A stretch of 64,000 nucleotides of DNA. Origin: Sphagnum magellanicum (lineage: Eukaryota; Streptophyta; Sphagnopsida; Sphagnales; Sphagnaceae). The notes under the pieces were generated by a model, which had not been told where the DNA came from, ran no database searches, and saw only the letters and a list, made by a program, of their open reading frames with translations. Position numbers and translations under genes: made by a program. Where the stretch lies: the NCBI GenBank assembly GCA_021904315.1, contig CM038923.1, forward strand, positions 19,288,038 through 19,352,037, given 5' to 3'. Below, piece by piece: positions 6,788-50,314 of the stretch (positions are counted from its first letter, which is position 1; every line of letters starts with the position of its first letter).

Positions 6788-9700
6788 TCAGATATTCTGA
6801 TGATGACGATGGCGATCTTTTTCCCGAACCACTTCAAAGTCTCTATCTGCAATCACAAACACAAAGATGATGTTGAGCCTAGTTGTCATTTTATAGCATG
6901 TTAAACAAATTTTGGTTTTCGTCCAACACAATTGTGAATAATAGCACTGGAGGGCAATCCTATCAACTATCCATCAACTCTAAATCCCACAAAACAGTGA
7001 ACTGTGGTGCGACATCCATATCTGTAGGAGGTCTGCACTACTCCACTAGACTTTTACACTTAATTACCCTGTATGCACAGGGCTTTCCACATTGTAAAAG
7101 TGATCAAATCAAAAACATGGAATGCCAGATGTGTAGAGTAAAAAAGACACAATAATTCACCTTGAGAGGATGGATACTGCCATAGCTTCTCAGATTGACC
7201 TGAGAAAAGGCCAAGAACCTGATTAGCTGTGTGCAGAAGCCAAGGTACATAAAATCAGAAAGCAAACCACTGGAGCTTGAAAGCTAAAGAAATTGGAAAA
7301 ATGCCCATCAGTGCATGACACATGGTACAGACCACCAGAATCCCAAATTCACATGAATAGTGAATTTAGTTTTTGTAGGGGTGTGAATATTGATGTTTCA
7401 GATTTTGTGGAAAGACTCTTCAAAATACACTGTGATATGTGAAGCACACTTTTTTCAAGAGACTGAACACATCTTTCTCTGAACATTTTGTCACAACACT
7501 GTCAAACTTGCCTCAGGTTCTTGTGAGGCCAGAGAAGATGGTGGGCAAGGACCTCTAGTAGATCATGGCAGATATGCCTCCACATGTGTGAAGCTCACCT
7601 AAGTCCCTGCTTCTTTCCTTGTGTCGATACTCTTTACCCCTCCCACTTTCTCGCTCCCGCTCCTTTGCTTTCTCTCTGAGCCTTTCCCTGTCCTGATCCC
7701 TTTCTCGCATCCTAATCCGATCCCTCTCTCGCTCTGCATCCAAATCTTGGCCACTTTCCCGCTTGCGGATTTTAGACCTATCCCGTTCCTTCTCCCTACT
7801 TCTGTCCCCTGCTCCATCTTCAAGGTAATTAGCAGGCTTTTCCTTTCCTGATAAAGAATCACCCCTCAACTCCCCATTAGAAGTAGACCCTCGAACCTCT
7901 TCCAAATCCTTCCTCCCACTCTTGACAGTTGAGCTCTTTGTATTGTTTGAAGCCTCTACAAAAGTAGGATCCTTCGCAACCCCACCATCCAAGCTCGAAG
8001 TGGTCTGTACCTGGAGGACTGGGGCGGCTCCATTTGTCACCCTCTTCAACGATCCTCCCTGTAGATCAAAGATGCCTTACTTAGAATTCCTCACCTCCAT
8101 GACATTCAACAATAGGTGCCAGGAAGGTCACAAGCATATCTTCATGAAGACTGACAATTTCTCAATACTTATCATTTAAGTGAACCTAAAAAGAATTGAG
8201 AGAATTGGAACATTTCAGATCTGACAACAGTAACCAAACAGCAAGCATGAAAAAGAGGAATCCCAACGCAAAGGAAAAGAGGAAACCAAATGACAAATTG
8301 AGGAGCAGTTTGAACAACAGGAATTGTCATACACTAAAGCAACATGTATGATACTGACCACCTACCATAACATTCCCACTGATGTCATCGGTTCCAAAGA
8401 GTGGGTGTAGGTTAATGTCAAACATTAACCAACACATCTGAGCTTTGTCAAAAGACTGGCCGGAATGGGAAAACTAAGCTATGATGCTGGCTAGCTCCAC
8501 GCAACTTACAAGACAAGAGAAGACAAAAAGAACCACAATAAGATGGAGGAGAAAAAAACTAAAAGAAAGACCACTGCACTTGAGATTAAGAAGCTAACAA
8601 GAAGAACCCAGGACACCCAAAAACTTATACAAGTCACCAGACATAGAGCAAAATGTCAGAAGCCTAGCCATGGTGGCCAGTGCCTGGACCCAGTTTGAAA
8701 ATGGACCTTAGAAAAGGTGTTAAGGAGAGATTCAAGGTTCTTAGAAATGCAGTCAAGCCTGAAATATGCACAGCCAAAAACTTCCATATCAAAGTTTGCA
8801 CACCTAGGTTGCTTAAATTCTAATAAGAAAATTGACAGAAACATCCCCCAATACATCTACCTACAAAACCCAACATACATGGACATTATTTCTATCACTG
8901 AGAAAATCTCAGCATTAACCAATATTTGGAATAAACTGTGAGCATGGACAGAAATTAAGAGGGCACCTGTGTATCCATAGGAGAATCCCAGGCCTTGCTG
9001 GCCAAAACAAATGACTTGGAGCTTTGTCCAACTTCAATGTATTCAGCCTTTGGCTGCTTATACAGGGCTGCAAGAACCTTGCACACAGTCTGAACATCAC
9101 TCCATTTTGCATCAAATACTTCCCACCATCTGTTGGGCAGTGGCACTTTAAATCGTCGAGCTGCAGCATACACTACCCCACACGCCACTACCTCACTTTT
9201 GAAGCGAACACAAAGAATGGTGCGCAAGCTGGAACAAACAGAACCAAGGGGTTATCAGCTCATGTCACTAGGGAAAGAAAATGTATTAGGGCACAAAGTT
9301 TACACTGTCAGAAACAGAACAGATTGCATCTCAGCTTTTACAGCTAGGAGACCAATACAAAAAAAAGCAGGCATATTGACAAATGACACAAGCTCCTCAT
9401 CAAGCTGCAGATGACCTTACAACGTCCATGAGCCCTAGCACATCAAATACAGCACAACCACACAAGCTAATGATCAAGATCTGAAAGTACAAACAAACAT
9501 CAGAAAAATTCCAAAAGCAGCAATAATAAAACAACCTTGTGGAATTCTAATACCGGACAAACAATCCAAACAGCCAGAAAAGCATGAAGACACTTCCTAC
9601 AAAAATTATTGTTCACAAAGTGATTTCTTGCCCACATATTACCTGTCATTTGCAAGGTTCCATGCCTCCTGCATCAGCTCCACAGGTGCCTGAAGGGTCT

Positions 9701-11190: not shown

Positions 11191-14100
11191 CCCTGTGGCC
11201 ATTGGCCCAAGTTATTTAACCCTCTTTGTGAGGGCACCCATCCCAATACTATTCCAGTTAATTTGACTTTAAGAGTTATTATACAAAGAAGAAAGAACCA
11301 TTAATTACAATTCAAAATTAATTTCACTATATATATAGTCCCAGTTATTTCGTTTTGTAAAATTTCATTCCCAGTTAAGCATTTGATGCCCTATTATGCT
11401 GAAACTGGCTCTTCTCAACCCCCCTAATCAACTGACTTTACGGATGACTTTATTCGCTCTAAATCCAATAACTTCTGTTTTGTTGGTTTGAAAATTGTGG
11501 GTGCAAGGTTCTCTTTCTTGTGTGCTCTTGTATGAAAGGTGGTTCTCTTCCGGGTGTGCTTTGGCAATGAACTTGGCTCAAGTAGATTAAACCCTCTTGT
11601 AAGGTCACCCATCTCAATGTTATCGTGTGACCATCCCAATATTGTCGTAGTCAAGGTGTGTGAGCTTAACTTTGGAAATCTTTATGGAACCTTGCTAAAT
11701 TAATTATGAAAGAATTTTTTTAAAAAATAAAATCAATTGATTTCTATAGACAAATTCATTTTAAATTTAATAACTTTTGTTTGTTGATTTGAAATTTGTG
11801 AAACGACAAATGAAACGTGCACATTTGAGTGCTTTTCAATGATACCAAAAGGCAGAATGGGGGCCCTTCACAATTTGGGAATGTTACAACATGGTCAAAT
11901 GCAAACAAAATAAATAATTATCTATATAAAATTTTTAAAAATTCTCTTGCACTTGCTTTAGAACAAATGGTAAATACCCAATTATTATTATTAGGTCTTT
12001 GCATTACTTTGCACTACTAGTGACGATAATTAACATAAGATCAAATTTTCAACTAAAGTTTTGCTAATATTTCAATAAATTATTTAAGATATGATTAATT
12101 GCCATACATTCACAATCCAAGATCACATAGATTGTTCATGAAATCCTTTTCATTTCCATTAATTTTAAAGTATGAAATTTTATTTTTATCTACTAAAACA
12201 GTAACATTTATGACATTCATTATGTCTTTTTTGGTGTCTTTCAACATTGTATCCAACAACCTCAATCTCTTTGTTGCCCACTATTGTTCAATTAGAAAAT
12301 TTCACACTTAAATAAGTCCTCTTGATTTTTCTAGTGTCCTTTAGGGTTTTATTGTGCGAAATTTCATGTCGTTGCAAAAAGAAATTGGGAAACGTAGTAT
12401 TTCATAATAAAATTCCTTGTTTTGAAAAAGAAATCACCAAACAAATGGTTGTTTTAAGTCAATCTAGCTAGATTTTTAATCTTGATAATTATAAATAGTT
12501 AGTTTATAAAAAGATTTTGGGATGTTCTTTAACAATGTTACATCAAAAAATTGAAAAATAATAATTTTTGATCAAAAACTAATTTCATGTGAAAAAAATT
12601 GCTAAAATTCAAGACATATAAGACAATTTGCAATCATGAGGTGTAGGTCAGGAACTTTAATAATAGTTTAATATCCAGGTTTCAAACTATAAATAATATA
12701 TTGTTTAGTACATCATTAAACCTAAAACTGAATTTGAATGAAAAGATGAAACACAAATGCACTTAATTGTGAAACATGCATTCTTAAATAACAACATGTA
12801 GAAAGGAATCTCAAAGTTTCTAAAACATTGGTGTGATATATAATGATAGTAGGTTAAAAGACATGTGGTTTATGATTAACATGAAATTGATTTAACCAAA
12901 ATATTAAATATTTGAATAATGTAGAATTTAAAATTAAAAGTCAAACTTTGAACATTTTTCAACTACATAGAAAATGAAATTTAAATAAAATTTTAAAATA
13001 AAATTTGTGATTAATTTTCATGATTTTGAAAGTCTTGCCCATCTTAATTTGCACCCAATTTGCAAAAATTGGTATATTGTTCACAAACTAAATCAATTTT
13101 TTTCTCATTTTTTTTTGTCACTTTTATTTATTTATTTTATTAAGCTTTTAAGACAACAAGTCATGCATCCTCCCATGCATTTCATTGAAATAATAACACA
13201 CATTAAAAGAAAATTTCAAACCTTACAACATATTCATGGCATGTGGAAAACACATAATGTGATTTCATGCATTCATACTATTTTCAGAGTTGCTTAAATA
13301 CATTGGATTATTGTAGTACAAAGAAAGCTTGAACACATGTTTATAAAATATTTAATGAATTTTGAATATTTCATGTCAAGTATAAAATATTCTTGAATAT
13401 TCCAAAAGATTGTGTATTTTTTTTCACAAAATTTTGTTCTTTGCAAATTACAACAATTCAAATTAAAGATGTTAGGTTATTATTTTAATAAATAAAATGC
13501 AAATATAAAAGTTACATATATGTACTATTATATAATAAACAAGATGGATTATTTTCTTCCAATAGGTCATATTTGCACAAAAACATTAGGACACAAATCA
13601 CCAAATGAATTTACAAGACATGTGTACAAACCATTTGATATAATCAAGTTGTACTTGCTTTATAACAACATTTTCATTTTTTATCATCTTCTACAATGTC
13701 AATAACAATTCTCAAGGTTTGTATAAGTTGTAAGGATATTTTGAATTCACATAATAAGAAATTGATAAATTTTATATTATAAGTTTATGAGGATTTATCA
13801 TCCAACAATGCTATTTGTAATGTGGACAATGTTGGCCATCTATCCATATAATTAATAAAATTTGAAATTGAATTTTCAAATATTGAATCTCAAAAAAAAT
13901 AATGAAAACATCACAAATTCAATCTATTATGAATACATAAAAGAATCATTTTTATTCAAAAGAATATTCATGCAAAGGTCTATGTTCTATACATTTATGA
14001 TAAAAAAAATTGGATTGCCAAACATGTTATCCCAATAGATATTTCATAACCATTTATTTTATCACAAAACATACACAAATTCATTTTAGTTTATTTATTC

Positions 14101-17100
14101 ATATTATGTATGCAATCTTATAGCAATGTTTGCATGGCATTTTACATATATACTATTTTGTAAACACCCATGATTAAAGCTTATTGAAATATCCATGATG
14201 ATGGGTAGGGAAAGAAACCACACTGAAATGAATTACAATGTTAGAAATTATAATTTGAAATTAATCTTAAAAGGGGTCACCTTTCAAAATAATAATTTTA
14301 GCAAATGCCAAAAATCAAGCTCTAACAACTATGGTGTGTATAATAGTAAACTTAGGGAAAAGGATTTTCATTCACAATTGCTCCACAAAACCCTAAGGTC
14401 AACTATTTTTTTCTATGACCACATTAATCCAACATTACATTGGGTGAGTGGAAAACTATGGAGGATGCTAAACCTAATGCATGCAATTGGGATTTTGCAA
14501 ATCTTGTGGTGTTTTATATGCAAAAAAAGGATTGGGTTACTTCAATGAATCATAACAATTTTACTCACTTTCAATACAAGGATTTAAAGGACAATCATTG
14601 TTAGTTGTTTCAAAAATTAATGACTTTTCATCCAAAAAAATGTTTTTGTATTATTTCCCACAATTCTCATTTGCCCAATGGTAGAAACAATTAAATTTCA
14701 GTGGCTTGAATGTTTCAAACATCCACTCACATGTTAAAATTGAAGACATATTCCATGTACATTGTAAAGGTTTTGCAATAGGGATCTTTGATTTATTTTT
14801 CAATTTTCAATTTTTACCAAATGTTGACTAGACTAAATGGCCAATGGATGTTTGATGTTATGCATGGTGGTGCCCAATTTGTGGAAAATAATGGTCAAAA
14901 GTTGTGGGTCAAAATTTTTGGGGCACAATTGCATCAATAAAATTGCCCAAAGCATAAGTAAATGGAATGTATTTGTCCCCCATTTTCATAATTGGTGTTG
15001 AGATATGCATTCACGTAACCCAAAGTGAAACCATTAAATTACCATATTGCATTTCTCATTCAAATATATCAAAATGTTTGTTAAGCAACAAAACATTACA
15101 TCTTGCTTTAATCATCGTAAACACAAAAAAAATAATGTTCCACCATTTTCTAACACCATGATAATATAAAGTAAAAATTGCACCGTAATGCATAATGGCA
15201 AAGGGGTTCAAACATGTTAATATGTACCAAAGTAGTTATAATTAATTACTTAATGTTTCATATTTCAAAATGGTAACTTAAATTGGTGTTGAAATTTTTG
15301 GATTTACTTATGTATCAACATTCATGTGATGATACAAATAAGTTTGAAATCAATCTAATGAATAGTTTGAAATCACTTATAACCAATGTTTATTTGAAAA
15401 TAACATATCTTGGGCACATTTTTTAATATAAACCTCAGCATAATAGCATAATGAATTTTCGATGTTTATAAAAATATTTATAAAAACAAAATTTGAATAT
15501 TCCAAAATAAGTAATCATCTAAAAAATTTAAGCTTATTTTAATATTTCAAAAATATTCCTATCTAAATAATCACCTAAGGAAGCACATTTGGCTCATCAT
15601 ACTATGCATATGACATTTGTTAATTTAGGCTTTGCATGTTATTGTGAACTAACAATGACAATCAATTGATTAATTTATGCAAAAAATGAATTGATATTGT
15701 GCAAATTAACTTCCATCCAAATGAAAATATAGAATGAAATTTCATGCAACTTGAAGGGAAATTTAATTCAATTTAATTCAATCCAAAATTGGAACAAAAT
15801 TGGATTCAATTGAATTGAAAAGAAATGGGATTAAATTGGTGGAGAATTCATTGAAAATCTGCTTATGAATATAATGTTGAGAAAAATAAATAAATAAAAA
15901 TTTAAGGACACACATCCAAGAAAAGACACCATTTCATGCTTCTTTACTAGGGAATGGGCTAATTAGGTTTTAATCTTGAACTATCCAAGTGGCAACTATG
16001 ACTTATAAAACCTAAAGTTGATATATAGGATACATTCATTTTGATGAATCACTGTCACTAGGATTTTGAAGTAGATTACCACAATGTTTTTTTATTTACT
16101 TTCCAAATTTCCAATGTCATGTCATATGCAAGCATCCCAAGAAGGATTTAGCTTTAAATGGTGATAGGTTTAAAAAACATGTCCAATTTTTTCTACTTAG
16201 TATAGAAAATGCCCCTTTCTAAAATCCAAGAAGAAATGTAGTGAAAAAAATTTCAATTTTTTTATATTTGATGATTTTTTTAAAATTATAAATAAAAAAT
16301 ATACCACATATAATTCTTATTTTTCTTTTTTCTTTTTTTATTTTTTCATTTTCCATAATATTTTCACACAAAAATATGGCTAGGCTACCGTATTAACTGA
16401 CTTGGTTACGCACCAATAAATTATCTTTTTGAAATTTCCAAAAACATCAAAACACAATTTTTTTTAACTGATGAAGGGAACTGCCAAACTTTGAACCACA
16501 ATTTTTTATATTTTCAAAAATCACATAAGGACAAAACAAATCATGTTTCCATTAACCATTAAATTATTTGAATTATCACTATCAAAAGCTAATGCATGAT
16601 ATTTGGTAGGTGTTAATTTTATATAGCATGCCATATGTTGCATTTCAATCAAATGGTTAATTTTTCAAACAATTAAACTAATCATCTTTTAATTATTCAT
16701 TTGACAACACGTATGATTATCCTTATATCATTTATGACCTTTCATATCATTGTTGCCCAAACATGAATTTTCAATAAAATAAAAATTTGAACTATAAAAT
16801 CTTTTTTTTTTACTATGAAACATGTACATTGAAAGAAATATGATCATTATTAAAGGCACCTTGGTATTGAACTAGGCTAGATTTTATGGTATTGTCCAAA
16901 TGGTACCATTTGATAAAATTACTTTAAATTGATCAATTATTCATAATCCAAGTGAATTGTCCAAAATGGATAAGCTTCCCAAAGCTTATAAAATTTGAAT
17001 GCAAATAAAAATTAAAAAAGAGGACAAGGTTAGGGTTGTAAGGACTTTCCTTTTCAACAAGTCATTAGGGTTAACAAGTGGTGTTAATGGTAATATCTTA

Positions 17101-18383
17101 TTTGGGTGACAATGAAATTACACAAAACCTAAGACAAATTCTTAATTAGTTTCTTGTTATTTTATTGAATTGAATGGTGAAAAGTTTCAAAACGCATCTA
17201 CAAGATGATATGTTTCATGAATACCCCTTGATCTTTTCTGGTTGCACAAAACAAAAAAAGTTTTGACCTAACCTATTACAACCAAATACAAAAATATAAT
17301 GTTTTATTTTATAAAATTTTATAAAATTTTGGCGATTGAAAAACCCAAAGTCATTTCATTTTTTCATTTTAGTTTTCTCTTTATAGCAAACTTTTGCTAT
17401 AGCCTAACATGTTGTAATTGTCATTGAAATTTTCACAACATTATTATCACTTAATATTTATGTGTTACCTTCCCAACATACATATGGAATTCTTGAAGAA
17501 TGTCAATGAACCCAAAATGGGATTGAATGTTGAAAGTTTTGAGATTACACCTTGGGATTCCCACATGTTATCCACCTTGTTTTGATAATAATAATAATAT
17601 ATATGTGTGGACTATTTTGTGGGCATTAGGGTAATGAAGAAAACATCATTTTTTTGTAAGAACTAAGTACCTTTCTAGTCTTTGTTTTGAATAATTCATA
17701 TCCATTATGTAGGTGTTTGTGGTTAAAGGCTATAAGAGTTACATATATAAGAAGGTAGAAAGGTAAAGGTTGCTAAAGGAAGATAATTCTATTATATTAT
17801 GGTGTATATCCTTTTTTGACATCCATGATATTGTTAAGGAAGTCAAGCCATTCATGTAGAAACTAATGTCAAAAGAGGAAAAAATTATGTTGATTGTAAG
17901 AATAGGATGTAACCACGAGCATTCTTTTCATGAAAGGTCTGCCAATGAAGTATACATGTGGAAAATGAAAGGTTGAAGTTGAAAGGCATTGTAAGGTGCC
18001 TAAAGTAAATCTTGTATCAAGAGGGATAGAAAATCAATGTAATGTCTTGGGTTGGATTCCACAAAACATGATGGGGGATTGATGTAAATCTAGTATGATT
18101 GGCTTCTATGTTAAATATTTATTTTAGAATATTAATCTTCCCTAAATGTTTCTTTGTTGTTGGAACTCAATTTAGTGTGAATAAGGTTATAATTTTAATT
18201 GTGTTTCAGGCATTAATATTCAAGGTGTGTTTTTTGAGTTTCATATTTCATATTTTAAAATTAAAAAACATGTGCAAGAGGAACAAGAACATGTTGATGC
18301 CAAATGTGTGTTTGTATTCTATTTTTACTTTAAACTTGAATTCATGTTGTTGTAGGTGAATATATTTTGAAACATGAAAAAAA
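11191..18383. other. AT-rich spacer, no gene seen
   Basis: About 7 kb of strongly AT-rich sequence with only short random open frames. I see no transposase or reverse transcriptase motif, no terminal repeats that pair, and no RNA gene. Several homopolymer A and T runs are present. It looks like old, decayed intergenic DNA. Confidence 0.6.
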
Positions 18384-35186: not shown

Positions 35187-35702
35187 TTGCCACTTCATCA
35201 AGTGGAGGTGACAAAAAATGGAAAAATAGATGGGGCATGTGCTGGCAAGAATATATGGGATGACAAGATTTGGGGTTTTGCACCATGCCACCTCAACATG
35301 GCAATTGTGAAGGTGGGGGAGCAAAATGTTGTGGACATGGCTGAACTCCGCAGGGTAATGGACACTGAGTTTGAGTATCTTCATCATGAGTTGAGTGACC
35401 AGGGATTCAGAGACTATGTTAGACAATTCATGAAGTCTGAACGGTCTCGGCTAAAAAAACGGTGGATTATGCATGGGCACACAACGTGCCCTATGGGTGT
35501 GGAAACATCCCAGTGGGACACCCTTGTGGCATATTGGTCTGAACGTGCAACAAAGAAGAGGACTGACCAACTTACGGGTGCAAGAGGTGCAGTAATGAAG
35601 GTCAACAAATATGGACAGGGTGGAAAAGCAATGGCCGAACATAAATTGGTAACACATTGTCTTCAACCTACTATGTTCTGGGATGTTTGGTGCAATGGGT
35701 AG
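35187..35702 (+). pseudogene. Transposase_24-like ORF of a CACTA/En-Spm element
   Basis: A 171-codon frame. Its middle contains FRDYVRQFMKSERSRLKKRW, a basic His-rich step, then CPMGVETSQWDTLVAYWSER and a K-x-R-T-x-x-x-x-x-A-R segment followed by QGGKAMAEHKL. The W-x-x-L-x-x-Y-W-x-S core followed by a K/R-rich N/G-A-R segment and a G-x-K-x-x-A block is the pattern of the plant Transposase_24 domain, the second protein of many CACTA elements. The frame stops at PTMFWDVWCNG, where related proteins continue. The Ty3/gypsy element begins just after this point, so the ORF may have been cut by that insertion. Later pieces may lie at 44144-44972. Confidence 0.6.
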
Positions 35703-35770: not shown

Positions 35771-35940
35771 AGTTTGTTGTGTTGCAAAAACTGGCATCCC
35801 ATCGAAGCCCATCTTTCTTTGAGATGTCATGCCCGTATGCATGGCCTCATGCATGATGGCTGGTTACGGGCATGCCCGTCATATCTTTTAGGGTTATTGT
35901 ATGGTTGTAAGGTTATGAATGTTCTTAAGTGACTATGCGC

Positions 35941-36395
35941 TATTAGGTTTAGGGTTTCAGCTTTTGGTGGCTGTATAAAAGGGTCAAGCCCTTCCCTTAT
36001 CCTTTAGTTTTTCTAGAATTCCTTTGTATGAGAGTTGCCTCCATAGTTCACTTGGATTTTCTAGATGCTCATGGTGGTTACTGCACGGCCACCATCTACA
36101 TACACCTTCACTACTTCTTTGCAATTTATTTTCAATTCTAGAAAAACTCTATTTCTTGTTGCTTCATGTTGAAAGTAAAAGATTTCTTGCACTTTTGAAG
36201 TTCTAGAGTTGTTACTACTGGTGTGGTGTTGTTGCTGCCAGAGGGAGCGCAAGGAGGGAGCGCAAGTTACTATTATTGTTACTAGGGGAGGGAGCTTTCG
36301 TGTTACGTTCAAGCCAACCAACAGAGTTGAGATCTTTGAACAGGTTTTAAAACTCCCCCTCCCTATTTCTTTCCATCTCTCTCCTGTGGCGACTT
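35941..36395 (+). repeat. LTR-like 5' end of the Ty3/gypsy element
   Basis: A TATAAAA box lies at 35974-35980, about 30 bp before a C/T-rich start-like stretch. The block from about 35978 to 36133 is repeated in inverted orientation at 43404-43560 with few mismatches, so it belongs to the element. A GGCGACTT string near 36390, just before the GC-rich leader, may be a worn primer-binding site; this is weak. The true 5' end of the LTR (upstream of 35941, perhaps near 35.7 kb) is not defined, and no same-strand 3' LTR was found in the window. Confidence 0.5.
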
Positions 36396-36424
36396 AGAAA
36401 TTTTAAAAAAAATAAAATAAATTA

Positions 36425-37040
36425 AGGTGGCGACGGCGGCTACCATTGTTGCAAAGCAACTAAGCACCGCCTGTTGTAGCGGCGCAAACTGTAACGTACA
36501 TCGTGTTGCCAACTCCAGCAGCGTTGCACAGCGCCGTAGCGAGTTCTAGCAACGCTGCACAACGTCGTAGCGAACTCCAACACGCTGTTGCATAGTACCG
36601 CAGCGAGCTGCAACAACGCTGCATAGCTCCGTCGCGAGTTGCAGCAGCATTGCACAACGCCGCCGTGAGCTTGTAGCAACACAATCATTACGAGTTCCAA
36701 CGCCATTGCTGCGAGCTCTAGCAGTAGCAATAGTAGCGCCGTAACGCCGTAGCAACAACAACGTTGCGCGTTGCAATGCCATCGCTGTTGCAACGTTACA
36801 ACACCATCGTTATTGCAGCGTTGCGCGTTGTAAATGACAATGTTGCCATCGTTGGACCTTGGTTCGTCTGTCGGACTTCCGTTCGTTCGACTGTCGCCCT
36901 GCGTCTTGCGCGCTTACCATCCTGCGTCTTGCTGCCATGCGTCCTACGTCTTACGCACTTATCGCCTTACGTCTTGCCATCCTGCGCCATGTCGTCCTAC
37001 GCCCTGTTATCCTACGTCCTGCCATCTACATCTTGCCTTT
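36425..37040 (+). repeat. GC-rich tandem repeats in the retroelement leader
   Basis: Two arrays lie between the LTR-like block and Gag. At 36511-36670 there are about five diverged 31-34 bp units, each built as 'ctccagcagcgttgcac' then 'cgccgtagcgag'. At about 36893-37035 a shorter ~12-bp motif close to 'cctgcgtcttgc' repeats many times. The sequence is dense in CpG and CNG sites, unlike the AT-rich DNA around it. Open frames through it are low-complexity artefacts of the repeats. Confidence 0.75.
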
Positions 37041-37380
37041 TCATCCAACATCTATTTGACTTCCGTGCAATATTTGTGTGTCACGGGTCATTCCCAACAA
37101 CGCATTTTATTCTTCAAATTGTACATTGTGTTAGGATTTTGTAGTTAATGTTGTGTACTATCACAACATTTTAAGGCATGGGACAACACCATGTCCTCGG
37201 ATGATGAGAGCACTACCGCTAGGCCAGAGCCCAGGTATTAGCTAACGAAATAACACACAATCTTTTGAGCCAATTTCTTTAAGTTCACGAGCATCACGAC
37301 GATACCATCAAGTGTCTACAACACCATCGTCGTCTAGTACAACTCCTATAAGGAATTCAAGCTAAGGTTACATTACATTA

Positions 37381-38811
37381 ACGATACATCAGAGTCCATT
37401 TGGAGGGGCTCATCAGTGGACTACGCCTGTTGTTGCACCTACTTTCGCACCATCACCGTATACTCCGTTGCAAGCTATGACTTCAACACCCATATACACT
37501 ATGGAGGTGAGCAGTTCCTTTGGGAGAATTGAGAAATTCAGCAGAAGGCCAGGTACTATTTCTTTGAAGGAGTTCAAAGTAACCTTCTCAACTGTGGTTT
37601 GTGAATTGGAGCTCAAGTATGGGGCTAATTACACCGAGGCGTTTGCATTCAAATAATTGGATGTCTATGAGCAACATTTTGCAAGGATTTTGGGTGTCAC
37701 CCAGATTCCCAATCTAACATACGCCATAGCCATTGCCACTGCCTCTCAAGCTGCATTGCAAGCTGCAATTGCACATCACGGGACTATGCCAAATAATCCA
37801 GACCCGGTACCTACCTCAGTAAACCTTTCTCCTTAGCAACTCATTATTGCTACTACAAACATTCCTCGCACAACTGATGCGCTTGCTGATCCAGTGGGGG
37901 AAATCTTTCGAATTCTTGAACTGGAATTTATAGTCAAAAGTTCTAAAAAAATTCTACGGCTCGCCACCTTCTCTCGACAAAAGGATGAAATGCTCAACGT
38001 GCTCTACAGGAGGCTTCTCAAACTCAAAGAGGATACCCAGAGCATCACCGACTTGGAAGCTGCCCACTGGTATCTTCGTTCGTTGGAAGGTACTCCAACA
38101 CTCCACGCGCAGGTTTTGCAACGAATCTTTGCAGAATTTGGAGACTCGTACACTTTGTTGGATGTGTACAACATTTCCGAAAAGTTGGAACTGGCTCATG
38201 CACACTATGAGGCCAGTACTATGAGGCCTCCATCACGTTCAAAGCCTCAACCTACACAAGTTGTGCCCACTAGATCATCACATTCTTCTTCAAGGACTAA
38301 AGCGGTGCACACGGCTACACCCATCCTACCTTCTTGCAACTATTGTGGCAATCCTGCCCACAAAGCTAGTGAGTGCAACATTCCTTCTGAAGATCTCTTT
38401 TGTGATTATTGTCGAAAAGAGGGACATCAGGAAGCTGTTTGTTTTGCCAAGTTCCCAGAGCGGAAGTAACTCCGATTACAATGGCAAAATCTGCCAGCAT
38501 CTTCCGCTGTACCTCACCCAAAAGCCAAGGCACCTCAGCCTTCCACTCAGGCTTTGCCCACCAAAGGTAATTCCGACAAGAATGTTAAGAAGAAGGAGCA
38601 CAATGCTGACAAGAGGGAGGTGCTTCAAGCGCATGCAATTCAAGTTCAAACTTTACAAAATGAACTCGAATCACTGAGGGCTCAACTTGCTAATCTAAAA
38701 AGCAAGTCCTCCCAACCAGCTAGTCATGCCCAACCTGTACAAGGTTCAGGATCACGAGAGGGACCTCCTAGGTCGTTCTACGGCCTTCCACACGATGCCA
38801 TGGTTGGGTAG
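37381..38811 (+). pseudogene. Gag of the Ty3/gypsy element (stop-broken)
   Basis: One reading frame runs through the whole stretch, interrupted only by stops: TAA 37654-37656, TAG 37834-37836 and TAA 38467-38469, ending at TAG 38809-38811. The N-terminal part (FRILELEFIVKSSK ... LEAAHWYLRSLEGTP) is the capsid-like helical region. Two CX2CX4HX4C zinc knuckles follow (CNYCGNPAHKASEC at 38335-38376 and CDYCRKEGHQEAVC at 38401-38442), the nucleic-acid-binding signature of Gag. A coiled-coil segment (VQTLQNELESLRAQLANLKS) and RSFYGLPHDAMVG come next. Every internal stop sits where a Gln codon would fit. By family knowledge this protein packages element RNA and drives particle assembly. Confidence 0.85.
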
Positions 38812-40290
38812 TATGTTCTTTCCACTCCACGTAATTCTAGTTTCACACCAGAAGTTGCTACTTCTTTTTGCCCTTCCTATGTCGCGGCACAAGAAGCTAG
38901 TGTGGCACCCAGAGTTTCTGCCACTAGTAGGTAATTCAAACCGATGGACTCACATCTGGTTCAAGTCCTATTACCAGGGCTAGAGGAGCTCGAGCAGTCA
39001 TGCCACAATCTTTTCGTCCTCTTAACATGGAAGAGGAACGCACCTTGTTGGCGAGGGGGGGGGGAGACTACTACACCACAAGCTATTAGGGCATCAAATT
39101 CTCGTGTCCCAGGAGTACATGTACATCAGGAAAACACACAATTTTCCACTGATCAGCTTATGGAATGCCAACTTCAAATGCATGAAGTGGCGCAAAAGCT
39201 TGTGAGTACACCATTGTTTAGTTTTCAAGATTTGAAGCTAAGCACCAAGGACATAATTGCAATCTTAGAGGATACTTTGAACATTACATCAGGTCCTCTA
39301 CCAATCCCTGATCCACATGCTACAGAGGTCCCATCCAACACCTTGGAAAGACAATCGATTGGCTCACATGTTGCAGATGGCGTTCGTAATTTGGTCATTA
39401 GTTCTAACATGGCTAAACTAGTAGGCTTTCCTACCTCTGATTTTACATTCACATATCAAAAGGAAGTTCAGAACACCTCACTTGTGGATTTGTTACTCAA
39501 CAAAGGTGTTGTGGATAGCCATTCTCTCCACAAAGTCTCTTACTCATTTTCGAAGGTGGTGCCTGGTGAGAGAACTTCCATCGCCACCAGAGTTACCATT
39601 GTTGACAATACTGGGTCAACAATCCAAGTGGGAGGACATACACCTAGAATAGTACTTCTTGACACAAGTGCCCAACCAGTGATTCTTGGAGTTAAATTTG
39701 CCAAGAAGATGGGCATGCTTGACTCCAAACTACGGAAATCTATGTGGCAAATTCGCACCGCTAGTGGGAGCGTAGAGGAGGTACTTGGGGAAAGCTCAGA
39801 ATTGATTACACTTAAGTTCAATGAAGGTACAGATCAAGAGCTTTGCTTATAGATCAGATGTTTAATCACCAATGCCACAAGTTATGATGTGCTCATCGGG
39901 CAAGAGGCCTTGTTTCCACTAGGTTTCACAATTGACAACTGGTTTGAACATGCATACTACCGAGTGGATTGGGAGACTGATGGCCACCACTTGGGATACA
40001 TACCCCTTGATTTACATGGGAACCATAGTCCTATGGCTCACCATTGTATGCTTAAGGAAGCACACACCATTTCCTACATCCAACAAGCTAGCCTCGAATG
40101 GATAGAGGGAGATGAGGAGGAGATAGCTTACGCTCAAGCTACTAAAAGCTTGAAGGAGGTTCCTACTGACATTCAACATGGACCAGAGGTTTTACAAAGG
40201 TTCAAAGTAGCTCACAAGCCTTTGCTCAAAGCTTTGTTTAGTTTTGAGAGCATGGAGAGCCATGGCGAACCGATTAAGCCATTACTTCGT
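38812..40290 (+). pseudogene. Retropepsin (protease) region of the polyprotein
   Basis: It continues the Gag frame. The protease core is RIVLLDTSAQPVILG with the catalytic Asp at 39661-39663; the usual D-T/S-G-A triad reads D-T-S-A, so the Gly is Ser here. The C-terminal flap region YDVLIGQEALFPLGF follows after TAG 39850-39852. Two compensating frame changes lie upstream: the frame slips near 38926-38937 (MPQSFRPLNMEEERTLLARG is in another frame) and returns at a run of ten G (39055-39064). The linker to the methyltransferase is acidic (EWIEGDEEEIAYAQ). By family knowledge the protease processes the Gag-Pol polyprotein. Confidence 0.75.
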
Positions 40291-41426
40291 CAACTAATCA
40301 CCTGGACACCACCTAAGGAAGGGATTACATTACTAGAGCTCTTTGGTGGTATTGGTACATGTTTCAAAGCCTTACTACAGTCAGGGATGGTGGTTCGGAG
40401 GTATTTCTACGTAAACATTGATCCTATTACAAAGCAAGTGGCGGCATCAAGAATGAAAGAGTTCACAACAAGATTTTCGCAACAATTTGCAACCACCGCA
40501 TGGAAGGCTAGTTTCACATTTTTACCCTCTGACATACAACTAATTCAGAAGAAGCATATGGAATTACTTGGCCTTGTCGACCTAATCATTTCAGGTTGGG
40601 AGTGTCAAGGATTTTCAGCGGCTGGATTTGGAGAAGGCTTAAGTGACACAAGATCTGGTATTTTCACGGACATGGTACGATTAATCACCTAGGCTCAATC
40701 CATTTCTCCTACATTTGGTTATGTAATTGAGAACACTCCTCAACTTGATCATAGGGAAAAAGTCTAGGAGCACTACACACCGGTCAAACATTACCTTGGA
40801 GAACCGCTCTTATTTGATGCGGCACAATGCAGTTCCTACGCGCACCAGTTGCGCAATTGGTGGACCAACTTGGCACCACTCTCAGTTCTGCAGCTAGCTC
40901 TGAAATACACTATCAGAGACCCCAACCTGCAGGTTTCTCACATATTGGATGATCAAAGTTCTTGCCAACCAGTTACAAGGCAAGAAAAACCTCCTTGGTT
41001 TCCTGTGAACACAATAGTAAAACCAAGAGGTGCTTGGCCCACCTTTGTCTCCTTCCTAGGAGCACACGCCTTTCAAGGAGATGGGCCAGGCCTGGTGTAT
41101 CGTCATTCTTCAACCACTTGGGATGAACCAAGCCTAGAAGAAAGAGAAAGGGCTATGGGGTTCCAAGCTAGCACTACTAGTCACACTAAGGTGACTAGAT
41201 TGGAGCGTAATGCTCTACTAGGGAGTGGCATGGACTTGAACTCCCTTACATGGTTGTTGGTAACTTGTGTACTCTTTCAAATGTACATAACACCAACACT
41301 GGTTCAATCAACTTGCAATTCTAGTGATGCAACCACATGGCACCTCAACCAAGTACACTTGCCTATCTTCAACACTCTACATTTCACTCTCAGTGTTGGG
41401 GGGGAAGAGGTACCATGTAATTTGAC
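40291..41426 (+). pseudogene. C5-cytosine DNA methyltransferase within the retroelement
   Basis: It continues the Gag-protease frame with no spacer. The C5-methyltransferase motifs appear in order: motif I ITLLELFGGIGT (LFGGIG at 40339-40356, SAM binding), motif II-like YFYVNIDP, motif IV VDLIISGWECQGFSAAG with the catalytic Cys codon at 40603-40605 (the usual Pro-Cys is Glu-Cys), then GLSDTRSGIFTDMVRLI, motif VI YVIENTP (40720-40740), a motif VIII-like block SYAHQLRNWWTNL, a target-recognition-like region, ERERAMGFQA, and motif X NALLGSGMDLNSLTW near 41211. The R-N-W-W-T-N-L and motif X blocks resemble DNMT3-type enzymes, whereas CQGFS resembles DNMT1/bacterial ones. Two TAG stops interrupt it (40690-40692, 40765-40767). 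The segment ends at EVPCNLT, where the pol part should continue. By family knowledge it would transfer methyl groups to DNA cytosine. Confidence 0.88.
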
Positions 41427-43403
41427 CAATGGTAATGAGGAGCGAGAAGGCTATAAATACGCTTAACTCTAAAGTGTCCAAGCTCCAAGTGCACCTTTTG
41501 AATAAGACCATGTCGTTCATGTGGTGGTGGAACCACTCTGTCGCCTTGTGGTAAGCATCGGACGAGGTGATTGTCCCTCCATGAATAGCGTTTGGACCGC
41601 TGTTGTATGCGATCTCGCTGACTTGAAGTAACTTGGGGAGGGTATTCCCCATGTTGAAGAAACCTCAGAGTGTTCAAGTCCTCCCATATATCGAAAATGG
41701 GCTGCTCAACCAAGTTGCATTGCAGTAGTGCAAGATAACTAGATGCCTCATATACATGTACTGCTGGAATCTGGTCAAAATCTTGCCTAGCTTCTGAAAA
41801 ATCTTCAGAGGTAGTGAGGGGTCTTCGTGACATGGTATCTGCATTTTGATGTGTAATACCAGGTCGGTGAATAACCTTGAACTCATACTCTTGAAGTATA
41901 AGCGCCCAACGAGCTAACTTACCAGTAAGTTTATCATTGGTCATCAACCATTTGATAAGCTGGTGGTCGATATATAAAGTGAAATTGGTGCCATAAAGAT
42001 AGGGCCTGAAATGTATGACGGCCCATACAACAGCAAGGCACTCCCCCTCGTATGAGGAGTAGTTGCTCTCAGCCTTGTTGTTGCTTCGAGATGCATAGGC
42101 GATAACATATTCCTTGCCTTCCTCATCAAGTTGGCCAAGAATAGCTCCAATACCAAGAGCACTCCAGTTAGTGTGTAGAATGAAAACCTTGTTGAAATCG
42201 GGTCTTCTCAGAATGGGGAACTCTGAAAGCTTTTCCTTGAGTGTGTTGAAAGCTTCCTGAGCTTCATCACTCCATGTCCAAGCAACATCCTTTTTTAACA
42301 ATGCATAGAGAGGATGAGCAATAGTACTAAAATCTTGGACATAAATTCTGTAGTAATTGCATAGTCCGATGAAGCTCCTCAATGTGTGAACATTAGTAGG
42401 ATTGGGCATCTCCAAAATGCCTACTACTTTGGCCCAATGAGCCATAATACCATCTGGCAAAATTCTATGTCCAAGGTAGATTATTGAGGTGATAGCAAAC
42501 TCACATTTTTTAGGATGGATCTTCATATTGACTTCATGGAGCCTCTTGAATAACTTTTCAAGATGAACCAAATGCTATAGGAGTCCCTTGCTATGCACCA
42601 GGACGTCATCTATGTAGCACTTTAGGAAATCTGCCCCTTCGAGAACCTGGTCCATGATTCGTTGAAAGAAGACAGGTACATTCTTCAATCCAAAAGGCAT
42701 CACAAGCCATTCCCATAACTTGTTGCTTCCATGGAATGTTGTTTTCTTGCGATCCTTCTCAGCGAGCACAATCTGGTTGAAACCTTGCTTCATATCCACA
42801 ATTGTGAAGATGTTTGAATCTCCAATGCTATCAAATAATTCTTCAGGGATGGGCATGGGGTACCTATCCTACGGTGTAACTAGGTTCAAAGGCCTATAAT
42901 CTCCGCACATCCTTTTCTCAATCCATAATCCAGCTGAATCTTTCTTTGCTGGCATTACTGTAGCAGCTACGAAATCAGAACTTGATGGCTGAATGAGACC
43001 GGCCTCATGGAGCTCTTTGCATCTTTCATCTACCAGTTCCCATTCATGTTTGCTCAACCTATGCCTCCTTCGATAGACGGGTGTCTCATTTGTAAGGTCT
43101 ATAAAGAACTACATGGTCTTACACCTACCTAAGTCTTTCATTGAGAACACAAACACATTTTCATACTTAATTAGCAAGTTTGTGACTTGGTCTCTTTCCT
43201 TTTTGGTGAGCCGGTTCCCCATAATGAAAGGGTAGTTGGAAATATTTGGGATGGAGTTGGAAAGTGTGTTTGAAGAACCTGGTGTATTGCGTTCTCCACT
43301 ATTCAACTGCGTAGATTCGTAGAAGGTTGTGATTGTTTCTCCAAAAGCTGATGCACCTCCAGGTGTATTAGACACAACTTGAGTCAAATTACATGGTACC
43401 TCC
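41427..43403 (-). pseudogene. Reverse transcriptase-RNase H-integrase part, inverted
   Basis: One minus-strand frame is broken only by TAG at 43111-43109, 42871-42869 and 42577-42575. In order from the right: EVPCNLTQVVSNTPGG, the RT N-terminal segment (YRPLNLVTP), FTIVDMKQGFNQI, MPFGLKNVPVFFQRIMD, the catalytic YIDD (42616-42605), the RT connection (YLGHRILPDG, LRSFIGLCNYYR), the RNase H domain (HTNWSALGIGAIL, YEGECLAVVWAV, ADTMSRRP) and the start of the integrase zinc-binding domain (VHLELGHFRVKR ... HYHW). RNase H has Asn instead of its first catalytic Asp (42169-42167). Integrase is cut at 41427, and its DDE core is missing. It is the Ty3/gypsy pol that should follow the methyltransferase, but it lies in the opposite orientation. 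Confidence 0.88.
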
Positions 43404-43560
43404 TGAAAATAAATTGCAAAGAAGTAGTGAAGGTGTATGTAGTTGGTGGCCGTGCAATAACCACCGTGAGCATCTAGAAAATCCAAGTGAACTATGGAGG
43501 CAACTCTCATACAAAGGAATTCTAGAAAAACTAAAGGATAAAGGAAGGGCTTGGCCCTTT
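43404..43560 (-). repeat. Inverted LTR/leader fragment joined to RT
   Basis: Read on the minus strand this matches 35978-36133 closely, from AAAGGGCCAAGCCC to TTGCAATTTATTTTCA, with a handful of substitutions. It includes an ATG (43510-43508) whose frame runs straight into the RT frame. Similarity to the left copy stops at 43560, near the expected start of transcription, so upstream U3 sequence is absent. Confidence 0.8.
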
Positions 43561-44143
43561 CATCTCAGCCTCCCTTGTGCATTGTGTATATATGTGTGTG
43601 CATGCATCTTTTTGATTAGTTTCTACCTTTAATTGGTTTTAGGCTATTTGTTTAATAGAGTTTCCTGCGGATTCACACCTTTATGACATTGTATGTCACG
43701 ACACTACACGTCACGACAAAGATGGCAGCTGTAGGTCTTGATTTTGTTAGCAACCCAAATACAGTAAGTGCTCAAATATTATTGCTTGTATTCAAATGTG
43801 GAAGGGGACAATCAAAGTGGAGCCCAAGTTATGCCACATAACAATATTTGCATACTTGTCAGGGGCAACAAGATTTACTTAGCTACTACTAGCCCTTGTA
43901 ATTTGGGCAAGTAAAAGCTATATTTGGGTATGTTATTTGAACTATCCATATAGGTATAAACATTGACTATTATGAACCCTTGGATCTAATACTATAAAGA
44001 CCAGGCATTGGGTGTTGTGTATCTAACACAAGTTGGTGTGGAGTGGTGGCTTACTGTGGCAGGAGTCTAATTCAACCTATCTTTCATCACAAATTAGAGC
44101 AATCAAAACCAAGCTCCCAAAAATGGTTGCGTAGGTAGAAAAA
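43561..44143. other. No assignable gene
   Basis: The right flank of the retroelement. A CACTACACGTCACG string near 43703 was considered as a CACTA terminus but does not match the ends found at 47065 or 47129. No open frame of note. Confidence 0.4.
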
Positions 44144-47795: not shown

Positions 47796-49045
47796 TTATG
47801 CATTATTTATTTATTTGGTTTGGGTTGAGCCTTTTGATTAGTTCATCCCATGTGCACTAATTTCATAATGTGAAATTGGATTGGCACACCCCCTTGTTTA
47901 TATAATGTTCAAAGTAGGAATGAAAAACAAACAATATGGGATAAGTTTTGAAGTTGCAACTTCCTTACAAACTAAGTTGTAATTCCAAAACTTTCTTCAT
48001 GCCTTATTTTCTTAGTTTTCAGATTTTTAAACAATTCAAATGTTAGATAATTATTTAATTAATAATGATTAAATTTACATATATTTAAATTATAAATTAT
48101 ACACTACAAATATTCAGTATTCATTATCAATTACTTAAATAAGCAATAACTTTTTAATATTTAACAAACTAGCCTTTTAGTTACTCACAAGTTATTAATA
48201 CACACCTCATAAATAATTAAATAAATAAAATATTTTAAAATATTTTTATTAATTTTAAGAATCTGATTGAATTATATATAATATAATTAATTTAAAATTA
48301 ATTTAATGACTATAATTTCAAAGTTAAAATTTTAAAATATTTATTTCAAAATTATAAGTAATGAATTAACAATTGTTATTAGAAAGTAAATTCTTACAGG
48401 AATTGTTTAAAAATTATTATTCAACTAACTACATTATTTATTGTATATTTACATTTACTGTTGTAAATATTATTATAGGTCAAATAATTATTTTCTCTTA
48501 GTAATTATTAACTATAAATACAATAATTTGTCAAACATAACATTAATTTTCATAATTACTGTAAAATTATTATAAAAATATTTATCATAGATGATTAATC
48601 ACATAATTTTTTTAGATGACATTATTATATAATAATTCGTGAAATTACAATCAGTAAAATAATTATTTTAACTAGATTGTAATTTTTCCAAATTTTTAAT
48701 TCAGGTTTGAAGTTATAAATTAAAAAGTGCGAATAATTATGTTTAATTAGAAAATAATTATGCACATACTAATTAATTCTTATCTGAAATAATTACAATG
48801 ACTTGAAAGTAATGTCACATTATTTACATTACTTAATTTCTTCTAATATAAAAATATAAATTATATAATATACAAATTTATGTTATAACAATAATTAGAT
48901 TTAATAAACATAATCATTTATAATTATTTATAAAAGTGATTTATTATGGATAACACTTGTAGAAAAAACCTTTGCAACCCAATCAATAATGTTTTGAATT
49001 AGAATATAAATTTAAGATTCCAAAATAGTAATTCGGAATTCAAAT

Positions 49046-49980
49046 ATCAATTTTAGATCAAATAATTTTTTTGAAGTTAAATAACAAATTTCAGAATTGA
49101 AATGTCAATTTTCAGATTCAAATAATAATATTCAAAATTTAAAAGTCCATTCTAAGACTCAATTAATAATTTTTTGAATTGAAATATTAATTTTGAGAAT
49201 CCAAAATAATAATCTGGAATTAAAATTTCAATTTTCAAGTAAATAATTTCTTAAAATTTAAATTAAAAACTTCAAAATTCAAATATCAAATTTCAAGTTC
49301 AAATAAAAACATTTAAAATCAAGTTGTCGATTTTTAGACTTAATAAAAATTTTAAAACTGAAATGATAATTTAGAATTCAATTATCAATTTTTAGATCAA
49401 ATAATTTTTTTGAAGTTAAATAACAATTTTCAGAATTGAAATGTCAGTTTTTAGATTCAAATAACAATATTCAAAATTGAAATGTCCATTTTTAGACTCA
49501 AGTACTAATTTTCAGACTTGAATTTTTTAATTTTGAAAATACAAAATAATAATTTGGAATTTAAATTTCACGTTTGAATCAAATGATTATTTAAAATTTA
49601 AATGCAAAATTTTCATATTCATATAAAAATATTCAGAATCAAAATTTTTATTTTTTAATCAATTAATAATTTTTTGAATTGAAATACTAATTTTTGGATT
49701 CGAAAATATTAATTTAAAATTCAAAATCAATTTTTAGATCAAATAAGTTTTGTTGAATTTAAATTGAAAATATCATATTCAGATCAAAATTTTCAAAGTC
49801 AAGTACTATTTTAAACAATTGAAAGAATCATTTTCAGATTCAAATATCACATTTCAAATTCTAATATTCTTTTTAAAAAATTAAAATAAAAATTTTCAGA
49901 ATTGAAATATCAATTTTCAGATTTGAATAAAAAAATTCAAAGTTCAAATATTAATTTTGAGATTCATTATATGAACAATA
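49046..49980. repeat. ~340-bp nested AT-rich tandem repeats
   Basis: The string 'atcaattt(t)tagatcaaataa' recurs at 49046, 49384 and 49726, giving a period of about 340 bp, with similar intervening sequence in the first two units. Within each unit shorter blocks of about 25-30 bp (ttttcagattcaaataa / tcaattttcagaattgaaat) repeat imperfectly. It fills the right third of the CACTA interior. Confidence 0.7.
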
Positions 49981-50314
49981 TACATACGTATGCATATTAT
50001 ATATATAAAATTTTAGTACATACATTAAAATACACCCTTATGTCATTGTAGAATACCTTTAGGATGCAACTAATTTGGTGACTATTACAACTAATGGGAC
50101 ATATCAACCTATTAATGGATGAAAATAAATGTAAAATTGATACAACCAATAGGATGAAATTTTTAATAGTTGCATCATAGTTAAGAAAATGACCAAAATA
50201 GTTGAAAGTTGGTCGTGTAGTTGTAAGTATTCCCAAATCTAGTCGCAAATGATTACAAGTCGCATGTAGTCGTAAATGGAGTGGTTACATTTTGGTTGAT
50301 TTCTACTAGTGATA

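What the first reader, a model, noticed from the sequence alone, without database searches (positions are those of the whole stretch)
37381..43560. Ty3/gypsy retrotransposon that carries a DNA cytosine methyltransferase between protease and RT
Seen directly: a single plus-strand frame goes from Gag zinc knuckles through a retropepsin into a full set of C5-methyltransferase motifs (LFGGIG, GWECQGFS with the catalytic Cys, YVIENTP, RNWWTNL, LLGSGMDLNSLTW), then reaches EVPCNLT, the same phrase that begins the reverse transcriptase frame. The order Gag-PR-MTase-RT-RH-INT is unusual. Established: capture of cytosine methyltransferases by retrotransposons has been reported in other eukaryotes (I recall dinoflagellates and a charophyte alga). 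Inference: in a land plant such an element could methylate its own cDNA or genomic copies, limiting damage to the host or hiding from sensors of unmethylated DNA.
Basis: partly seen in the sequence, partly recalled or inferred. Interest (0 to 1): 0.95.

Follow-up and report, generated by a model that had tools for sequence, protein, structure and literature searches.

The report
Moss retrotransposon with built-in DNA methyltransferase
A large family of jumping genes in what is very probably a peat moss carries its own DNA-methylating enzyme as a standing, conserved part; such elements were known from algae, and a published paper says land plants lack them.

Summary
The methyltransferase (MTase) is real. 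Window 40129-41424 (+) encodes a broken C5-MTase (PF00145, E 2.8e-8) downstream of Gag and protease in one copy of a Ty3/Gypsy element (35825-43718). Elsewhere in the genome (439 Mb; fits Sphagnum divinum) the order Gag-PR-MTase-RT-RH-INT-PHD is seen, in one fetched copy as a single 2379-aa frame. All 92 scored RT loci have MTase sequence beside them. MTase dN/dS (0.25) is close to that of RT (0.27) and integrase (0.22), and 20 of 20 copies checked keep the catalytic Cys and Glu. The repeats are A-coding-B-A-B, the layout published for KnitGypsy-Dnmt3 of the alga Klebsormidium, with TG...CA ends and 4-bp target duplications. Two more MTase lineages occur in the genome, and a related element sits on a contig filed under a cyanobacterium. 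In that element and lineage 2 the MTase is followed by a leaky-type stop (UAG-CARYYA). Verdict: a new member of the known Gypsy-Dnmt3 kind, in a land plant. Methylation of its own cDNA is the likeliest role, and is inferred.

The parts
35825..43718 (+). whole rearranged copy of the Gypsy-MTase element; flanks GAGA (35821-35824) and AAGA (43719-43722), 3 of 4 bases alike
   Evidence: alignment to L009 element; ends TGTC...GACA and flanks
35825..36136 (+). 5' repeat A1
   Evidence: 93.7% to A of L012
36137..37473 (+). leader; 36426-36989 does not align to L009
37474..39240 (+). Gag (broken); two zinc knuckles at 38335-38442
   Evidence: tblastn of L009 gag piece, 81%; knuckles read from the sequence; no Pfam Gag match
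39241..40101 (+). protease region; active site DTSA, not DTGA
   Evidence: gag-asp_proteas E 2.5e-5, 25.2 bits, under the cut-off of 28.2; 90% to L009
40129..41424 (+). C5-cytosine MTase, DNMT3-type; TAG stops at 40690-40692 and 40765-40767
   Evidence: PF00145 E 2.8e-8 on the part before the first stop; 91% to L009; stops
41405..41425 (+). 21-bp stretch present again inverted at 43384-43404: junction of the inversion
   Evidence: overlap of element positions 5650-5670
41684..43363 (-). RT and RNase H, inverted, with stops
   Evidence: RT_RNaseH E 5.3e-37, RVT_1 E 4.1e-16; 94% to L009
41426..41683 (-). first 86 aa of the INT piece, inverted; rest of INT and the PHD finger missing
43407..43573 (-). 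fragment of repeat A, inverted (part of the 160-nt inverted repeat 35975-36134 / 43404-43563)
43558..43718 (+). 3' repeat B, ends ...CACGACA

Best explanation
The window holds one dead, internally inverted copy of an MTase-bearing Ty3/Gypsy retrotransposon of a moss. Shown: in this family the MTase is a standing domain between protease and RT. It is DNMT3-type, keeps its catalytic residues, has a dN/dS close to that of RT and INT, and has stayed with RT while the elements split into at least three lineages in this genome plus one on an outside contig. The element encodes RT-RH and a DDE integrase, has split repeats A-coding-B-GC-A-B, and its copies have TG...CA ends and 4-bp target duplications. 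Inferred: the MTase is made with Gag-PR; in lineage 2 and the outside element it lies upstream of a leaky-type UAG, so it would be present in the particle in Gag-like amounts rather than as scarce Pol. There it methylates the element's own newly made DNA (linear or circular), so that incoming copies look like the host's methylated repeats and are shielded from nucleases or sensors, or are inserted already muted, which limits damage to the host.
For: PF00145 and order; at least 96 MTase loci; 71 of 92 scored RT loci have an MTase match listed or 29 at most 2 kb upstream on the same strand, modal gap exactly 301 bp in 45; 20 more have MTase in fetched upstream DNA (16 over at least 418 of 440 aa, 4 partial: 95, 115, 271, 318); the 92nd is the window copy with MTase on the other strand. 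Median pairwise dN/dS for dS>0.08: MTase 0.249, RT-RH 0.274, INT 0.223, PR 0.299, Gag 0.339, PHD 0.124 (20 copies). 20 of 20 keep Cys, Glu, Asn and the first Arg, 18 of 20 the second Arg. Repeats. Perfect 4-bp duplications in 7 of 7 long-form and 5 of 7 short-form copies, 6 of 20 not assessable, and in both lineage-2 copies looked at. L010 has identical B1/B2 (178 of 178), a recent insertion. DNMT3A/B head the PDB matches of lineage 1, lineage 2 and L059. RT tree and MTase identities agree: lineage 2 is nearer to the outside contig than to lineage 1. Leaky-type stop in 4 of 4 lineage-2 loci and in L059.
Against: No activity, expression or methylome data. The published K. nitens relative gave no methylation in yeast (called inconclusive there). 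Lineage 1, the window's own, has Glu in place of the usual Pro before the catalytic Cys (20 of 20), which may alter or lower activity, and lacks the leaky stop (0 of 20 loci). The lineage-2 copies with that stop are broken elsewhere (L052 stops at 3466 and 6574; L053 at 2995 and many after 5656). The dN/dS values come from copies picked for long open frames. The tree does not decide whether the MTase came from a host DNMT3 or a phage-like enzyme.
Confidence: 0.55

Rival explanations
1. The MTase helps the element by acting on chromosomal copies: it adds methylation to resident copies and flanks, keeping copy number tolerable (self-restraint), rather than marking incoming cDNA.
For: At least 96 MTase loci coexist with the host; the PHD finger on INT could tether the integration complex to chromatin.
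Against: A trans-acting self-silencer gives single copies no obvious advantage, yet the MTase dN/dS is close to that of RT and INT. In lineage 2 and L059 the MTase lies on the Gag side of the leaky-type stop, which suggests a role in the particle.
Confidence: 0.2
2. The enzyme's substrate is RNA (genomic RNA or primer tRNA), or it serves as a non-catalytic nucleic-acid-binding part of the particle. The Pro-to-Glu change in lineage 1 marks such a shift.
For: Glu for Pro before the catalytic Cys in 20 of 20 lineage-1 copies, while lineage 2, lineage 3 (L071) and L059 have Pro. KnitGypsy MTase was silent in yeast.
Against: Catalytic Cys, Glu and Arg kept; the nearest relatives found are DNMT3A/B and phage enzymes annotated as DNA MTases.
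Confidence: 0.2
3. The MTase is a chance insertion in this copy, or a host gene read into a transposon.
For: None beyond the broken state of the window copy.
Against: 92 of 92 scored RT loci have it beside them; related MTases stand at the same place, before RT, in lineage 2, lineage 3 and L059.
Confidence: 0.01
4. The moss got the family by horizontal transfer from an alga rather than by descent from a streptophyte ancestor.
For: Lineage 2 RT is 70% identical to the outside contig but 55% to moss lineage 1.
Against: The host of the outside contig is unknown; three divergent lineages in one genome suggest long residence.
Confidence: 0.3

Closest known systems
KnitGypsy-Dnmt3 of the charophyte alga Klebsormidium nitens (de Mendoza et al. 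2018, PMC5890265; sections 9, 10, 11 and passages read)
   Same: Gypsy domains, DNMT3-type MTase inside the polyprotein, purifying selection on the MTase, and the same odd A-coding-B-A-B repeats.
   Different: Host is a moss; at least 3 lineages and at least 96 loci of one of them. In the text seen for K. nitens I met no mention of 4-bp duplications, a PHD finger (0 occurrences), a leaky stop or a Glu-Cys motif IV. Sequence kinship could not be tested: no K. nitens sequence was available to me.
SymbioDIRS-Dnmt3 of dinoflagellates (same paper)
   Same: DNMT3-type MTase in a retrotransposon polyprotein; A-coding-B-A-B repeats; enzyme shown there to methylate CG in yeast.
   Different: DIRS element with tyrosine recombinase; here a DDE integrase and target duplications.
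DNMT3A/DNMT3B and DNMT3-like phage MTases (phrog_116)
   Same: Best PDB matches are DNMT3A/B; best PHROG is phrog_116; one clade with DNMT3A, moss DRM and five phage enzymes against three bacterial and one IMG/VR MTase, 100/100.
   Different: Motif IV is (E/P)CQG(F/H)S, not PCN; about 27% identity to a DNMT3A fragment; no DNMT3 accessory domain met in the Pfam scans of the pieces.
Standard Ty3/Gypsy LTR elements
   Same: Gag-PR-RT-RH-INT, TG...CA ends, short target duplications (standard features recalled).
   Different: MTase, PHD finger, split repeats instead of two equal LTRs; RT only 35-37% identical to two other Gypsy families of this genome.

Membership tests
Ty3/Gypsy | RT followed by RNase H then DDE integrase (rve) | tested here: met
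   L009, L052, L059 by Pfam; in the window RT-RH only, INT cut
Ty3/Gypsy | two equal flanking LTRs | tested here: not met
   A-coding-B-A-B: 11 of 20 loci long form, 7 short form A...B, 2 unclear; lineage 2: L052 long, L053 short
Ty3/Gypsy | integrase-type insertion with short target duplication | tested here: met
   perfect 4-bp duplications in 7 of 7 long-form and 5 of 7 short-form copies, 6 of 20 not assessable; lineage 2, 2 of 2
DIRS | tyrosine recombinase and no target duplication | tested here: not met
   rve integrase found, duplications found; no tyrosine recombinase among the Pfam matches of the pieces scanned
Gypsy-Dnmt3 (KnitGypsy kind) | DNMT in the Gypsy polyprotein | tested here: met
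Gypsy-Dnmt3 (KnitGypsy kind) | A-coding-B-A-B repeats with Gypsy domains | tested here: met
   criterion from the legend read
Gypsy-Dnmt3 (KnitGypsy kind) | MTase of DNMT3 type | tested here: met
   place inside the DNMT3/phage clade unresolved
Gypsy-Dnmt3 (KnitGypsy kind) | sequence descent shared with the K. nitens copies | not testable with these tools
   no K. nitens sequence was available
C5-cytosine MTase | motif I, motif IV Cys, motif VI Glu-Asn, motif VIII Arg-x-Arg | tested here: met
   20 of 20 for motif I Phe and Gly, Cys, Glu, Asn and first Arg, 18 of 20 for second Arg; Pro before Cys replaced by Glu in 20 of 20
C5-cytosine MTase | methylates cytosine | not testable with these tools
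   needs an assay

The most novel reading that the evidence does not exclude
An old streptophyte clade of split-repeat Gypsy elements carries an MTase as a Gag-side particle enzyme (Gag-PR-MTase, then RT-RH-INT-PHD by readthrough of UAG-CARYYA), so that cDNA is methylated inside the particle. In the moss, lineage 1 does without the stop and has a changed catalytic loop (Glu-Cys), giving a changed substrate or sequence specificity. This would be a virus-like particle that writes host-type epigenetic marks on its genome before integration, inserted from a circular form whose B-GC-A junction is conserved across lineages.
Probability: 0.2. Interest if true: 0.85.

Novelty: new member of a known kind. 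Interest (0 to 1): 0.62.

Why it matters
[quoted passage not shown] passages read). Here what is very probably a moss carries them in at least three lineages, with at least one recent insertion and selection on the enzyme. If the host is Sphagnum divinum, it grows in sterile culture (PMC9946827, passages), so whether a selfish element methylates its own DNA becomes directly testable. The leaky-stop arrangement, if functional, says where the enzyme acts: in the particle.

Tried and rejected
Chance insertion of the MTase: rejected (92 of 92 scored RT loci). Plain LTR element: rejected by repeat mapping. DIRS: rejected (integrase, duplications). L001, L003 and L004 first looked like host DNMT3 genes; the RT frame behind the MTase showed a second retrotransposon lineage. 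L002, L005 and L030 look like moss DRM genes with rearranged motifs. A canonical host DNMT3 was looked for with a DNMT3-like phage MTase: of 10 matches 4 are lineage 2, 2 lineage 3, 3 the DRM loci and 1 a broken unassigned stretch, so none was found this way, by an exon-by-exon search. Viral contigs: three scans gave one contig, with an MTase that groups with the bacterial ones (L058 and L069), and nothing for RT. Genome contigs: 4 loci, of which only L059 informs. PHROGs: phrog_116 does not by itself show phage origin, since the DNMT3A fragment is closer to those phage enzymes (87-103 bits) than to the retrotransposon ones (50-62 bits). A spliced-RNA origin of the inverted part was dropped on reading the sequence: no donor GT at the junction in repeat A. 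No fold was predicted: the window MTase is broken, G000 loci are not accepted by that tool, and I judged a single-sequence model of L059 not worth a job. L001 is part of L052's place and L003 of L053's; with L004 these are three lineage-2 loci, L072/L074 the fourth.
Full report
What is in the window. The element runs from 35825 to 43718. On the + strand it has repeat A1, a leader, Gag with two zinc knuckles, protease and a C5-MTase; from 41426 it continues on the minus strand with part of INT, RNase H and RT, then an inverted scrap of repeat A, then repeat B on the + strand. Compared with a related copy (L009, 9037 nt from A1 to B), 5650-7628 is inverted, 7629-8870 is lost and 5650-5670 is present twice. 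The + frame has eight internal stops. With most of integrase gone this copy cannot move by itself.

The family. The window lies in a 438,994,042-base genome of 31 contigs. A published Sphagnum divinum assembly is 439 Mb with 20 chromosomes and a roughly 5-Mb chromosome 20 (PMC9946827; passages); all matches in my searches fell on contigs 1-20, and contig 20 is 4.72 Mb. NAC-domain matches (57 exon-level matches, about 25 genes by my pairing) fit a bryophyte (recalled). The species name is inference. PF00145 has 124 matches above its cut-off in this genome, 123 of 387 candidates scored; the MTase of L009 finds 97 matches at 96 loci, 96 of 1193 candidates scored, so copy numbers are lower bounds. 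Twenty loci of 10 kb were fetched, chosen mainly for long open frames. In one of them, L009, Gag-PR-MTase-RT-RH-INT-PHD stand in one 2379-aa frame; its Gag is known by zinc-knuckle motifs and by 23% identity to the lineage-2 Gag, which has a zf-CCHC match, not by a Pfam match of its own.

Is the MTase part of the family? Of the 92 scored RT-RH loci (of 5299 candidates), 71 have an MTase match listed or 29 within 2 kb upstream on the same strand, 45 of them at exactly 301 bp. For 20 more, 1.8 kb upstream was fetched and all 20 hold MTase sequence: 16 cover at least 418 of 440 residues, the others 95, 115, 271 and 318. The last is the window copy, with the MTase beside the RT on the opposite strand. 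Only close relatives are scored, so distant MTase-less kin are not excluded.

Repeats and insertion. Long-form copies have A1 (about 311 bp), coding region, B1 (about 178), a GC spacer, A2, B2. Of 20 loci 11 show the long form, 7 a short form A...B without terminal repetition, 2 are unclear; the short form is most simply B1/B2 recombination (inference). Ends are TGTC...GACA with small variations. Perfect 4-bp duplications flank 7 of 7 long-form and 5 of 7 short-form copies with both ends in the locus; L019 matches 3 of 4 bases, L017 does not match, 6 loci cannot be judged. In lineage 2, L052 has the long layout (with about 195 bp extra in A2) and the same GACA-GC-TGTC junction, L053 the short one, with duplications TTTC and CTTG. 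A1/A2 differ at 3 to 11 sites in 8 copies, B1/B2 at 0 to 8 in 9 copies; L010 B1/B2 are identical over 178 bp.

Other lineages. Lineage 2 (L001/L052, L003/L053, L004, and the older L072/L074) is a Gypsy element with PR-MTase-RT-RH-INT-PHD; against lineage 1 it is 23% identical in Gag, 33% PR, 40% MTase, 47% RT, 59% RH, 53% INT. A third, broken lineage (L070, L071) has MTases 55% and 66% identical to lineage 2, and L071 runs into RT-like sequence in L073. Outside the moss, L059, a 9285-bp contig filed in a cyanobacterial metagenome-assembled genome, carries zinc knuckles-PR-MTase-stop-RT-RH-INT-PHD. Its MTase is 50% identical to lineage 2 and 45% to lineage 1, its RT region 70% and 58%. Gypsy elements are not known from bacteria (recalled), so I read the contig as misfiled eukaryotic DNA of unknown host. 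It has the GACAGCTGTC junction once, at 7051 (up to one mismatch 0.28 expected by chance), and its ends overlap by 127 identical bases, so it assembled as a circle; no second A or B was found in it. It is either an extrachromosomal circle or a collapsed repeat.

The enzyme. DNMT3A or 3B head the PDB matches for lineage 1, lineage 2, L059 and the lineage 1+2 profile (profile: DNMT3A E 8e-15, entry 4onj, a plant DRM by recall, 3.5e-8, HhaI 5e-6, DRM2 1e-5). In a tree of 18 sequences over 169 columns the five retrotransposon MTases form one clade (98/95) inside a clade with DNMT3A, moss DRM and five phage enzymes (100/100), set against three bacterial and one IMG/VR MTase; the order inside is unresolved, and DNMT3A is a long branch. 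Phage enzymes score at least as well against the retrotransposon MTases as the DNMT3A fragment does, so capture from the host is not shown. In 20 of 20 lineage-1 loci the catalytic Cys, Glu, Asn and first Arg are kept, the second Arg in 18 of 20; the residue before Cys is Glu in 20 of 20 instead of the Pro seen in lineage 2, L071 and L059. Pairwise dN/dS medians (dS>0.08) are MTase 0.249, RT-RH 0.274, INT 0.223, PR 0.299, Gag 0.339, PHD 0.124; decay after insertion and the choice of open copies both bias these.

RT tree. Lineage 1, lineage 2 and L059 group against four sequences of two other Gypsy families of the genome (100/99), lineage 2 with L059 (100/98). With two outgroup families only, this supports one origin of the MTase-bearing clade without proving it.

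A leaky-type stop. Between MTase and RT, three lineage-2 loci (L001/L052, L003/L053, L004) read TAG-CAACTA, a fourth, older one (L074) TAG-CAACCA, and L059 TAG-CAATCA. All fit UAG-CARYYA, the tobamovirus-type readthrough context (recalled). Lineage 3 has TAG-CAACCC at the matching place in a broken copy, one base off the pattern. Chance is 1 in 512 per TAG; of 53 in-frame TAGs in lineage-1 copies none fits, and on the element strand the 9-mer occurs once each in L052, L053 and L059 and in none of 20 lineage-1 loci. Against over-reading: the lineage-2 copies have other stops (L052 at 3466 and 6574; L053 at 2995 and many after 5656), and the three TAG-CAACTA loci are 98% alike, so they are not independent. 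I infer that MTase is made with Gag-PR and that RT-RH-INT-PHD comes by readthrough. Lineage 1 lacks the stop, by loss or because it never had it.

Literature. KnitGypsy-Dnmt3 is described with Gypsy domains and DIRS-like repeats (sections 9, 10, 11 read). A 2025 paper (PMC12344493; [quoted passage not shown] Searches for Sphagnum with DNMT3 and retrotransposon (0 papers), for KnitGypsy-Dnmt3 (1 paper) and the listings (titles and abstract beginnings; passages of four papers besides de Mendoza et al.) showed me no report from a moss in this open-access library; subscription journals are mostly missing. The Sphagnum genome paper has no occurrence of retrotransposon, transposable or methyltransferase in its main text.

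Noticed in passing
L059 (CADCWO010000201.1): A Gypsy-MTase element filed in a cyanobacterial metagenome-assembled genome, with 127-bp identical contig ends: misbinned eukaryotic DNA, perhaps a circular form.
   Followed up: partly
L052 5536, L053 5536, L004, L074, L059 3489: In-frame TAG followed by CARYYA between MTase and RT, shared by lineage 2 and L059.
   Followed up: yes
L009:784-2220, L052:6577-8715, L059:5091-6632: PHD finger at the C-terminus of integrase (E 8.1e-12, 1.2e-8, 1.8e-10), with the lowest dN/dS of the six domains (0.124); it could guide insertion to marked chromatin.
   Followed up: partly
L070, L071, L073 (G000 C17:7310200-7311400, C1:2566100-2567900): A third, broken MTase lineage.
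   Followed up: partly
window 12001-18000 and 48001-50000: Stretches of unusually low GC (16-28%) in the window.
   Followed up: no
window 35187-35702: Weak match to a plant Ptta/En/Spm transposase (E 0.0025, below cut-off) just upstream of the element.
   Followed up: no
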